Below are positions 24,920 through 58,367 of a DNA stretch of 64,000 nt, in pieces. The number at the start of each line of letters is the position of its first letter. Position 1 is the stretch's first letter. The DNA lies in NCBI GenBank assembly GCA_016841765.1, contig JAENYN010000013.1, positions 1 through 64,000 of the forward strand, given 5' to 3'. Source of the DNA: Guptibacillus hwajinpoensis. GTDB taxonomy: Bacteria; Bacillota; Bacilli; Bacillales; Bacillaceae_O. The translations under genes were made by a program, and so were the position numbers. Below the pieces are notes generated by a model. The model was not told where the DNA came from. It worked only from the letters and a program-made list of their open reading frames with translations, and made no database searches.

Positions 24920-25230
24920 GCATATAAAAAAGCCCGCCCCTGAAAAGGGACGAGCTTACTCGCGGTACCACCCTTGTTGAAGGCAAATGTACATGCTTGC
25001 TGCCTTCCACTCTGCTGGATAACGGACCAGTACCGTCTTCCGCTACTGCAGTAAAGGGCTTCATGGCAGGCGGTGCTGCCATCCTTTACGGGTTCACAAA
25101 AGATGCTCCAGGAAGTATTTCACGCCTGCCTTTGTACTGGCTCACACCGGCCGCCAGCTCTCTTGGACAGGGAGTCAGCCGCTACTTGGTCCCTTCAAAG
25201 CATTTTTTTCCAATGTATGTTATACTATTC
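24920..25230 (-). promoter_or_regulatory. T-box riboswitch (tyrosine) upstream of tyrS
   Basis: Minus-strand AACAAGGGTGGTACCGCG T-box (24961-24978) followed by GAGTAAGCTCGTCCCTTTT; candidate specifier TAC (Tyr) in GTGAAATACTTCC at 25115-25117. Confidence 0.95.
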
Positions 25231-54688: not shown

Positions 54689-56914
54689 TTGGTGAAAACA
54701 ATACGCAGTAAAATTCGTATGATTGTCGGTGTTTCACTGTCTGCACTTCTAATTGTCTTACTTTTTACTACGGTCTTTTTTACTATGCAGGAAAATGTAA
54801 AGGAAAAACAGCAAAATTTGAACCAGGCTATTACGATGAGCCAGGATATCATGATCAAAATGAGTGAAATCAGGGGTATTGAACAGAATTTCTTAAGAAC
54901 TCCATCCACGGAGCTGGCCCAGCAATTGAATAACCTTGCGGATGATATGATCGAAATGTCAAGTAATGCCGAAAAGCAGTTTGAAAACGAGCCCGGCTTA
55001 AAAAAGCAGTTCACTGAACTATCAAGCCTCACCAACCAATATCGCGACAAATTCCAGCCGCTTGCCGCTATGTTCAAGCAGCTTGGCTACTCTGACACCG
55101 AAGGGCTTAAAGGCAGCCTTATGTCAATCCATGAATCATTTGATGAGTATGCCGGCATGTCAGGGGATACAGATGCCGACGAGCAGCTCACCAAAGTCAA
55201 AATGCTGGAAGCGCAATTTATTGCCAGTGGAAATACCGAAACATATGAACAGCTCCAGGGTGAAATTGATACATATGAATCACTTGTGGCGGACGCGGCA
55301 CAAGAAGAAAGCAGTTTTACAACTGACTTTTTGAAATACCGAAGCGCCCTTGACACGATCCAATCAGCCTTTGTCCGTTCCGAAACGATCACATCAGATT
55401 TCGGAAAAATTGCAGAATCGGTTGCAGCAGAAACGGCTGCTGTCAAACAAGGGGTTGCCGATGAGTTATCTAAACTCTCAGACGAGCAGCAAAAACTCCG
55501 CAGCTATTTAATAGCCGGCCTGATCGCCATCGGCATCCTGACCGTTACCGGGATACTGGGCATGAGCATTTATTTGACCCGGACTATCACGAAATCGATC
55601 CAGTCGCTGAAAAAAGGGGCTGAAGTTATTGGTGAAGGGAACCTTTCCTTCCGGGTGGACGTCGCTTCAAAGGATGAGATGGGAGACCTTGCTGAAACAT
55701 TCAACCATATGGCTGAAAAAATGCAGCATACGATGAAAAACGTCCTAAATGCCTCTTCGGAATTATCGGCATCATCGGAAAATCTCACGGTAGTTTCACG
55801 GGAGACAAACGCCAGCGCCCTGGAAGTGAATGAAGCCATTCACCAGGTAGCAAAAGGTGCACAGGATCAAGCCGAACAAATCGAAACGAGCAATCAACTG
55901 CTCCACTCCGTTTCCAGGGCAATAAGTGAAACGAGTGAATCAGCTTCGGCAATCAACGCTGATGCGAGTTCTGCTGAAAAAGAGGGATCTGAAGGTTTAC
56001 GGGTTATGGCTGAACTGGACCGGGTTTCACAGGATTTCGTGAAGCTGGCTGCCAGCCTGACCGAACAGGTAAAACATGCAGCCGAGCAATCCCAACAAAT
56101 CAACCATATCGTCCATACGATCGAAGAAATTGCTGAGAACACTAACCTTCTTGCTCTTAACGCAGCGATAGAATCGGCACGGGCAGGAGAATCCGGCCGG
56201 GGATTTGCTGTGGTTGCAAAAGAGGTCCGCAAACTGGCAGAAAGATCCAAAGGGGAAGCACGTTCAATCAAGGGTCTGATTGAACAAATGTCAGCAAACA
56301 TGGAACAGCTTGCAGGCGAAGCAGAAGCCATTGATCATCTTCAGGAAACACAGCTTTATTCTGTCGACAGGACCAAAGCCGCCTTCGAGGCGATTGTGGC
56401 AAATGTCTCCCATATCGGCTCAGCGGCAGGTGCAGTCCATAAAGCATTCCAGCACGTGGAAGAATCTAACCGCGAACTTGCTTCCAAACTTACAGAAGTA
56501 AGCGCGATATCAGAAGAATCAGCAGCCACTGCTGAACAGGTCAGCGCCTCAAGCGAAAGCCAGATGCATGGAATCGAACAGGTCAGCAATGCCGCCACTC
56601 ATCTTGATGAAATTGCCAGGCTGCTGAAACAGCAGGTCTCCCAATTTGAAATCGGAGAGTACGAGGATGAAGAAACCGGCTGGCCTGAAGAGCTTCATGG
56701 AGAAAACACGATTGACCCGGAGGAAGAACATGCGGAAAACCTCATTGACAATTCCGGCCCGGATTCATTTGACGAGCCCGCTGAACAAGAAGTGGCCGCA
56801 TCTGCTGAAGACAAGCATCAGGAAGAAGCTGAACAAATATCATTCGACGAAAACAAAGAGGAAGAAGCAGAGGATACAGAACAAGAAGACGCGGACCCGC
56901 CAGCTGATAAATAG
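54689..56914 (+). CDS. Methyl-accepting chemotaxis protein with acidic C-terminal extension
   Basis: HAMP domain after second TM; hairpin tip [47 protein letters not shown]. Confidence 0.95.
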
Positions 56915-56979
56915 TTCAGGCAGACTAAAAGGGAGAAAATATTGATTCTGGATTATTTTCTTTTTATCACCATAAAAAA

Positions 56980-57036
56980 CAAAAAGAACAGCGAGCCGAC
57001 TGATGAAATTCCTTTTGGCTTGCTGTTCTTCTTTTT
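56980..57036 (+). terminator. Terminator of the MCP gene
   Basis: AAGAACAGCgAGCC...GGCTtGCTGTTCTTCTTTTT. Confidence 0.75.
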
Positions 57037-57129
57037 AGTGTGGAAATATGGCTAGCGGATATGATTTCCTAGATACCGGCGTGAAATGGTGCAACTCAAG
57101 AACTTATAAAACGAACTAGTGATTGATAA

Positions 57130-57630
57130 TTCAGTGTTTATATTCCTCTCGTTTTCCTGAGTAAGCGTAGTGAATGTGGGTTCAGTGCTTATATTCTTCT
57201 CTTCTTCCTGATTAAGCGCACTGAATGAGGATTCAGTGCCTATACTTTTCTCTTTTTCCTGATTAAGCGCACTGAATTAGGGTTCAGTGCTTATATTCTT
57301 CTCATTCTCCTGATTATGCGCACTGAATAATGATTCAGTGCTTATACTCTTCTCATTCTCCTGATTATGCGCACTGAATGAGGATTCAGTGCTTATACTC
57401 TTCTAATTCTCCTAATTATGCGCACTGAATGAAGATTCAGTGCCTATACTCTTCTCATTCTCCTGATTATGCGCACTGAATAAAGATTCAGTGCCTATAC
57501 TCTTCTCATTCTCCTGATTATGCGCACTGAATGAGGATTCAGTGCTTATACTCTTCTCATTTTCCTAATTAAGCTCACTGAATAAGGATTCAGTGCCTTC
57601 ATTCTACTTATTCTTCTAATGACAGCCACT
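57130..57630. repeat. 51-bp tandem hairpin repeat array (9 full units plus a partial tenth)
   Basis: TTCAGTG at 57130, 57181, 57232, 57283, 57334, 57385, 57436, 57487, 57538, 57589 (exact 51-bp spacing); each unit carries TTCAGTGC and GCACTGAA arms. Confidence 0.97.
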
Positions 57631-57839
57631 GTACAAAATGCGCTCCTGCCTTCCCGGACGCCCGTGTAAAGCAAATGCCGGCATCGGAAAAGAATGGATC
57701 AACCACTAAGACTGCCTCCATTTTCATTACGTACATATCGAAAGGGATCATACAGATAGGCTGTCCCTATTCGTATTAATCCCCCCTCAAAATGTTTATG
57801 ATTCCTCCCTTTCAGCCGGCCACACTGCTAAAGAACCTG

Positions 57840-58367
57840 TTACTCCTCTTGCTCTTTTTTCACAATAGAACGAATGATTTTCATCATCTTCCTGCTGTCA
57901 GCAGCAAGTTCATTCATTTTCGTTTCTGTTGTGATTTTGGCACCGCCGATTCCGGTGGTGACTTCATATTCCTTGTCTCCCGCAGGTATGACACTTAAAA
58001 AGCCAAAGCGGCCATCTCCTTTGAATGATTCAAGCAATAACGGCTCCTCAGCTTTTGCCAAATCTTTGTACAACGCTTGGCTTGTCTCATCCTCCAGTTG
58101 ATTAAAAAACAAGAGAAACTGTTGGCCATCTTCGGACAAAACAAAATTATTGCCATCTTCGGATTCAATTTTCATATCTTGAGGGACATAAAATTCCATA
58201 AGCTTGGTATTTTTGTTCGGTTCTGTCGGATTGGCATTAAACTCTTCCTTGACAGCGGTTTCCGTTTCCGCCAGCACGTCTTCTTCCGATTGGGTGCAGC
58301 CGGAGAGAAAAGCGGCGGCCGTCAGGATTGTGATTAGTATAAATATAAGCTGGTTCAATCGGGGCAT
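57840..58367 (-). CDS. Hypothetical lipoprotein
   Basis: Signal peptide with lipobox FLSGC. Confidence 0.75.
   Translation of the reverse strand: MPRLNQLIFILITILTAAAFLSGCTQSEEDVLAETETAVKEEFNANPTEPNKNTKLMEFYVPQDMKIESEDGNNFVLSEDGQQFLLFFNQLEDETSQALYKDLAKAEEPLLLESFKGDGRFGFLSVIPAGDKEYEVTTGIGGAKITTETKMNELAADSRKMMKIIRSIVKKEQEE

What the first reader, a model, noticed from the sequence alone, without database searches (positions are those of the whole stretch)
57130..57630. Strict 51-bp tandem array of hairpin units between convergent genes
Ten TTCAGTG landmarks fall at exactly 51-bp intervals (57130 to 57589). The consensus is TTCAGTGCTTATACTCTTCTCATTCTCCTGATTATGCGCACTGAATGAGGA. Each unit holds TTCAGTGC and its exact complement GCACTGAA. 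Across every inner unit junction this gives a tight hairpin, CACTGAAT-(4 variable nt: GAGG, AATG, GAAG, AAAG, AAGG)-ATTCAGTG. The stem is invariant while the loop varies, which suggests selection or homogenisation on the dyad. Edge units are degraded and central units are homogeneous, typical of copy-number turnover. All six frames contain stops, so it is not a coding repeat. It lies between the MCP terminator and a convergent lipoprotein gene. It could be a protein-binding array, a recombination hot-spot/VNTR, or a multi-hairpin RNA.
Basis: seen in the sequence. Interest (0 to 1): 0.8.

Follow-up and report, generated by a model that had tools for sequence, protein, structure and literature searches.

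The report
Genus-specific intergenic palindrome satellite family
The 51-bp repeat array is real and is one of about 40 sister arrays scattered between genes of this Bacillales genome and of one other species of its genus but found nowhere else searched; it is a bacterial satellite-DNA family whose palindromic core is strongly conserved, probably because something recognises it, while the rest drifts.

Summary
Nine to ten 51-bp units lie at 57129-57596, with a conserved dyad CACTGAA-N6-TTCAGTG across unit junctions. It is not a one-off. The same genome holds 129 exact dyads (0 for the reversed-pattern control), in at least 25 class-1 arrays, plus at least 15 arrays of a second class (TTATAGGCAC-N15-GTGCCTATAA). 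Both classes have a 51-52 bp pitch, sometimes in phase within one array. The family occurs in one congener and in no other of 399 Bacillales genomes. Across 10 orthologous loci of the two species, 8 share an array, mostly with different copy numbers; 2, including this one, are array-free in the congener. Between the species the arms are 91-100% identical, the linkers and centres only 63%. Sequence, not base pairing, is conserved. Best explanation: a dispersed intergenic VNTR/satellite whose palindrome is a recognition site for a lineage-specific DNA-binding factor (inferred), with tandem-duplication turnover. Main rivals are a selfish or neutral satellite and an RNA hairpin-cluster barrier. 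RAYT/REP membership fails: the RAYT-like genes are not flanked by the repeat, and there is no GTAG tag. New variant of a known kind.

The parts
57129..57596 (+). Class-1 tandem array, 9.2 units of 51 bp; purine-loop strand is +
   Evidence: TRF; unit table; model R1 scores + strand 33.7-60.6 bits v - strand 16-36 bits
57207..57250 (+). Extended palindromic element ATTAnnnGCACTGAA-NNNNNN-TTCAGTGCnnnTAnT; further copies start at 57258, 57309, 57360, 57411, 57462, 57513 and, weaker, 57156 and 57564
   Evidence: R1 matches, E 1e-20 to 9e-10
57219..57238 (.). First of eight exact CACTGAA-N6-TTCAGTG dyads (also 57270, 57321, 57372, 57423, 57474, 57525, 57576)
   Evidence: pattern search
57117..57187 (.). 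Degraded left-edge dyads (57117 with 3 mismatches, 57168 with 2)
   Evidence: L052 positions 2118 and 2169
57588..57638 (+). Degraded right-edge unit (33/51 to consensus)
56978..57036 (+). Terminator-like inverted repeat of the upstream MCP gene, between the gene and the array
   Evidence: inverted repeat I22; sequence
54689..56914 (+). Upstream gene: methyl-accepting chemotaxis protein (context only)
57840..58367 (-). Convergent downstream gene: lipoprotein-like ORF, 175 aa (context only)
   Evidence: 76% identical orthologue in G001

Best explanation
The array is one locus of a genus-restricted, dispersed, intergenic satellite (VNTR) family. SHOWN: a palindromic element with half-site GTGCnnnTAAT is repeated in head-to-tail arrays of strict 51-52 bp pitch; arrays keep their place in most compared loci but change copy number; within an array the linker is homogeneous, while between arrays and species linker and centre drift and the half-sites do not. 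INFERRED: units duplicate and are lost by slippage or unequal recombination in register, and single units occasionally seed new loci. The half-sites are kept because a lineage-specific sequence-specific factor, most likely a dimeric DNA-binding protein, recognises them on duplex DNA. The pitch is close to five helical turns, which puts the A/T patches on one helical face, so successive sites would face the same way. Lying outside genes and often beyond their terminators, the arrays would act as protein-coated boundary or topology sites between transcription units, working like BIME-2/gyrase sites without being REPs.
For: About 40 arrays in the genome. Column profile: most arm positions and TA at +-14.5/15.5 have zero between-array variation, while linker and nnn are near-random. 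Orthologous arrays: arms 91-100% v linker/centre 63%. nnn bases between the two conserved blocks do not pair above expectation and the full helix shows no covariation beyond shuffles: sequence, not pairing, is conserved. The same half-site and pitch in a second class with a different centre, in phase in mosaic arrays of both species. A/T-step power at 10.2-10.4 bp is about 3.5 times the within-unit permutation null. Divergent gene pairs tend to be avoided (3 of 33 v 38 of 156, p=0.06) and convergent ones favoured (12 of 33 v 31 of 156, p=0.065); terminator-like hairpins precede the array at 19 of 42 facing gene ends. One unit of array L046 nearly shares this array's linker, suggesting seeding.
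Against: No binding protein has been identified. Class 1 shows strand asymmetries (purine centre, G.U over A.C, U-richer downstream) that a symmetric duplex site does not predict. Anti-complementarity at +-1.5 (1% v 31% expected) is not explained by a dimer site. A 17-bp harmonic is stronger than the 10.3-bp one, so the helical-phase argument is only suggestive. Location biases are borderline.
Confidence: 0.42

Rival explanations
1. Selfish or neutral satellite: units spread by a transposition-like process and expand by slippage; the arms are conserved only because the spreading machinery needs them, with no benefit to the host.
For: Genus-restricted high copy; arrays sharing linkers between loci (L043/L045, L033/L051, L046/this array); presence/absence at 2 of 10 orthologous loci; two Y1_Tnp (RAYT-like) genes per genome.
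Against: The Y1_Tnp genes are not flanked by the element. Eight of ten compared loci share the array between species about 84% identical in genes, which indicates slow movement. No target-site duplication was shown.
Confidence: 0.3
2. RNA hairpin cluster: read-through transcripts form a run of hairpins with purine tetraloops that block, terminate or protect RNA 3' ends between genes.
For: Class-1 centre is purine-rich on one strand. One-sided changes are G.U rather than A.C on that strand in 22 v 3 arrays. That strand folds better in 23 of 29 arrays (p=0.0014) and is U-richer after the stem (81 v 24 of 214 dyads). It is the sense strand in 12 of 15 codirectional contexts. Three terminator-like hits in this array on + v 0.5 expected. 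RNA fold z -7.5 on + v -3.4 on -. Weak relatives in two other genera look like single bidirectional terminators. Hairpin clusters are reported to act as terminators (PMC8355165).
Against: No pair covariation. Class 2 shows no sense-strand link (4 of 9). Arrays often lie beyond the gene's own terminator. No proper U-tract next to the stem. Shared ancestry of one oriented unit could produce the class-1 asymmetries.
Confidence: 0.2
3. REP/BIME element mobilised by a RAYT transposase.
For: Extragenic palindromes in high copy; RAYT-sized Y1_Tnp genes in both genomes.
Against: RAYT genes are described as always flanked by two REPs (PMC2817692); here none of the four intact loci carries the element. 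No GTAG-type head in the logo. Units run head to tail, not in alternating orientation.
Confidence: 0.05
4. A one-off replication-slippage array with no wider meaning.
For: Edge decay and homogeneous centre fit slippage; the locus is empty in the congener.
Against: About 40 sister arrays with the same core and pitch but mostly unrelated linkers.
Confidence: 0.03

Closest known systems
MIRU/VNTR loci of mycobacteria (dispersed intergenic tandem repeats)
   Same: Short tandem units of similar length at tens of intergenic loci, copy number differing between lineages (comparison with MIRU from general knowledge)
   Different: MIRUs are not built on an invariant palindrome; here two classes share a half-site and a strict 51-52 bp pitch; no sequence relation tested or expected
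REP/BIME-2 arrays of enterobacteria
   Same: Extragenic palindromes of about 35-40 bp in regular arrays outside genes; BIME-2 are strong gyrase sites (PMC6379681, PMC2817692)
   Different: No GTAG head, no alternating orientation of units, no flanked RAYT gene; gyrase binding not tested
Non-coding satellite families of Leptospira interrogans and Methanocella conradii
   Same: Non-coding satellites with repeats over 30 nt spread through one genome; reported as rare in prokaryotes (PMC6749651)
   Different: Repeat 37-46 nt there (69 for one family) with few loci per family (up to 6); here 51-52 nt, about 40 loci, palindromic core, two interlocking classes, conserved place in two species
Hairpin-cluster intrinsic terminators (PMC8355165)
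   Same: Several hairpins in series downstream of genes
   Different: Sequence-conserved, up to 18 units, weak or absent U-tracts, often beyond the gene's own terminator

Membership tests
REP/BIME (RAYT-associated) | High-copy extragenic palindrome, 20-40 bp | tested here: met
   129 exact dyads, extended element about 38 bp
REP/BIME (RAYT-associated) | GTAG/CGTC-type tetranucleotide at the foot of the palindrome | tested here: not met
   logo of 164 units shows (CTG)ATTAnnnGCAC, no tag
REP/BIME (RAYT-associated) | RAYT gene flanked by two copies | tested here: not met
   Y1_Tnp loci L180-L183 hold no class-1 or class-2 element
REP/BIME (RAYT-associated) | Alternating orientation of palindromic units | tested here: not met
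   units head to tail; centre direction constant in most arrays, mixed in L040 and L048
REP/BIME (RAYT-associated) | Binding of gyrase, Pol I or IHF | not testable with these tools
   needs in vivo cleavage mapping or pull-down
Dispersed intergenic VNTR/satellite family | Same unit in tandem at many non-coding loci of one genome | tested here: met
Dispersed intergenic VNTR/satellite family | Copy number differs between related genomes at one locus | tested here: met
   orthologous pairs
CRISPR array | Unique spacers between repeats | tested here: not met
   linkers homogeneous within an array
CRISPR array | cas genes | not tested
   not searched; no CRISPR match in Rfam scan
Intrinsic terminator | GC-rich hairpin directly followed by a U-tract | tested here: inconclusive
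   81 of 214 class-1 dyads pass a lax T-rule on the purine strand, 24 on the other
Known Rfam RNA family | Match at gathering score | tested here: not met
   none at the array

The most novel reading that the evidence does not exclude
A bacterial genus has evolved its own satellite-like chromosomal boundary system: about 40 intergenic arrays of helically phased palindromes (two classes sharing one half-site) coated by an unknown lineage-specific architectural protein that organises or insulates transcription units.
Probability: 0.2. Interest if true: 0.82.

Novelty: new variant of a known kind. Interest (0 to 1): 0.55.

Why it matters
[quoted passage not shown] This family is larger, has an unusually clear split between an invariant palindromic core and free-drifting linkers, and can be followed locus by locus in two species. 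That makes the question of what keeps a bacterial satellite's core constant directly testable. It also offers ready VNTR typing markers for the genus.

Tried and rejected
Rfam scan of the region: nothing at the gathering score. Plasmids and phages: no match. RAYT mobilisation: genes present but not flanked. Link of array direction to the leading strand: 18 of 30, p=0.36, rejected. Extended hairpin through the nnn bases: no covariation. Sense-strand RNA stability in class 2: 4 of 9, not supported. Literature search for the core sequence returned 2,680 papers of which the 20 listed are unrelated. L186:8791 (51-bp period) was first taken for a third class but is probably a coding repeat.

Full report
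OBSERVATION. Tandem Repeats Finder gives one array at 57129-57596 with period 51, 9.2 copies and no indels. The unit table confirms ten TTCAGTG landmarks at exact 51-bp steps, degraded edges and homogeneous central units. All frames hold stops. Eight junctions carry the exact dyad CACTGAA-N6-TTCAGTG. The array lies between an MCP gene, with a terminator-like inverted repeat at 56978-57036, and a convergent lipoprotein-like ORF.

IT IS A GENOME-WIDE FAMILY. The unit has 86 matches in its own genome. The exact dyad occurs 129 times against 0 for the reversed control, and every listed copy has a 6-base gap although 1-14 were allowed. Reading the loci shows at least 25 class-1 arrays of 2-18 units. 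All have a 51-52 bp pitch, with rare exceptions. The linker is mostly homogeneous within an array and differs between arrays. Arrays L037, L038 and L047 contain assembly gaps of N, so their copy numbers are uncertain.

A SECOND CLASS. A looser search found arrays of TTATAGGCAC-N15-GTGCCTATAA with array-specific centres and a 52-bp pitch. Both classes share the half-site GTGCnnnTAA(T) in alternating orientation. They can follow one another in phase in one array (L048 and its orthologue L073), and lie side by side in L044 and L050.

DISTRIBUTION. The tandem half-site pattern occurs in this genome (48) and one congener, G001 (44), and in none of the other 397 Bacillales genomes sampled. A covariance model finds only weak hits outside the genus, in G023 and G051. 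On reading these look like single terminator-type hairpins such as GCACTGAAAA..TTTTCAGTGC. This raises an origin from a terminator hairpin as a possibility, no more.

COMPARISON OF SPECIES. Ten loci could be paired by flanking genes (about 84% identical). Eight have an array in both species, mostly with different copy number; one of these (L159/L069) pairs on one flank only, and L066 is cut by a contig end. Two, L037 and the locus of this finding, are array-free in G001. Consensus identity between orthologous arrays is: inner arms 100%, GCAC 91%, TTA 90%, nnn 67%, centre 63%, linker 63%. The conserved part is therefore the palindromic half-site, while linker and centre drift. One unit of array L046 nearly shares this array's linker; L043/L045 share linkers, and L033/L051 share linkers and 5' flank. 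This suggests occasional seeding of new loci.

DNA OR RNA. For DNA recognition: the three bases between GCAC and TTA do not pair above expectation, and the full helix shows no covariation beyond shuffles. The same half-site recurs with different centres (class 2). A/T steps are phased at 10.2-10.4 bp above a within-unit permutation null, though a 17-bp harmonic is stronger. For RNA: class-1 centres are purine-rich on one strand with constant direction in most arrays, and positions +-1.5 are almost never complementary (1% v 31%). One-sided changes are G.U rather than A.C on that strand in 22 v 3 arrays. That strand folds better in 23 of 29 arrays and is U-richer downstream, and it equals the sense strand in 12 of 15 codirectional contexts. 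These asymmetries can also descend from one oriented ancestor, and the independent test in class 2 failed (4 of 9). Direction is not tied to the leading strand (18 of 30). Many tests were run, so single p-values near 0.03-0.06 should be read as hints.

LOCATION. Convergent gene pairs are over-represented and divergent pairs under-represented around arrays, both at p about 0.06. Terminator-like hairpins stand between gene and array at 19 of 42 facing gene ends under a strict rule. Gene calls here are longest-ORF calls, not curated annotation.

FAMILIES CONSIDERED. REP/BIME: copy number and extragenic palindrome met; GTAG head, alternating orientation and flanked RAYT not met, although two RAYT-sized Y1_Tnp genes exist per genome (PMC2817692). 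CRISPR: no unique spacers. Rfam: none. The closest kind is a dispersed non-coding satellite/VNTR family, reported as rare in prokaryotes (PMC6749651). It may work like BIME-2 gyrase sites (PMC6379681) without being one.

VERDICT. A real, genus-restricted satellite family, not found described in the held library, with strong constraint on its palindromic half-site. Recognition by a DNA-binding factor is the best-supported reading of that constraint but is inferred; no factor was identified.

Noticed in passing
L203:2320-2526 (G000 C5:77919-78125): A 52-bp tandem array of unrelated sequence (ATGCGTTACCCTTTTGATGGCGTGAGG...), stops in all frames, sharing only the pitch with the family.
   Followed up: partly
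L101:3607-3837 (Lentibacillus sp. CBA3610) and L107:2029-2205 (Bacillus timonensis): Tandem arrays of 52-bp period but different sequence in other genera, stops in all frames; the 52-bp pitch may be a wider feature of Bacillaceae intergenic arrays.
   Followed up: no
L087:1162-1404 (Gracilibacillus suaedae); L077:690-1007 (G001): Arrays of a direct short motif (TTTATTGCGAAAT every 21 bp; GCGYGAAA about every 26 bp); coding status not settled.
   Followed up: no
L180-L183 (G000 C35, C21; G001 C26 twice): Two RAYT-like Y1_Tnp genes (193-218 aa) per genome without flanking copies of this palindrome; which repeat, if any, they serve is unknown.
   Followed up: partly
L218:3690-3860 (G001 C29): The orthologous MCP/lipoprotein gap in the congener holds, in place of the array, another element with inverted ends (AAAAGCGCAAGGCGCC...GGCGCCTGGAGCTGGAC), resembling dispersed repeats of Bacillaceae from memory.
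   Followed up: no
L033 and L051: The two arrays share their linkers and also about 37 bp of 5' flank containing a hairpin (ATGCAATAAATCTTTTGGTGTTGCAT), as if copied together.
   Followed up: no
window 24943-25207 (-): T-box leader (Rfam RF00230, 147 bits).
   Followed up: no
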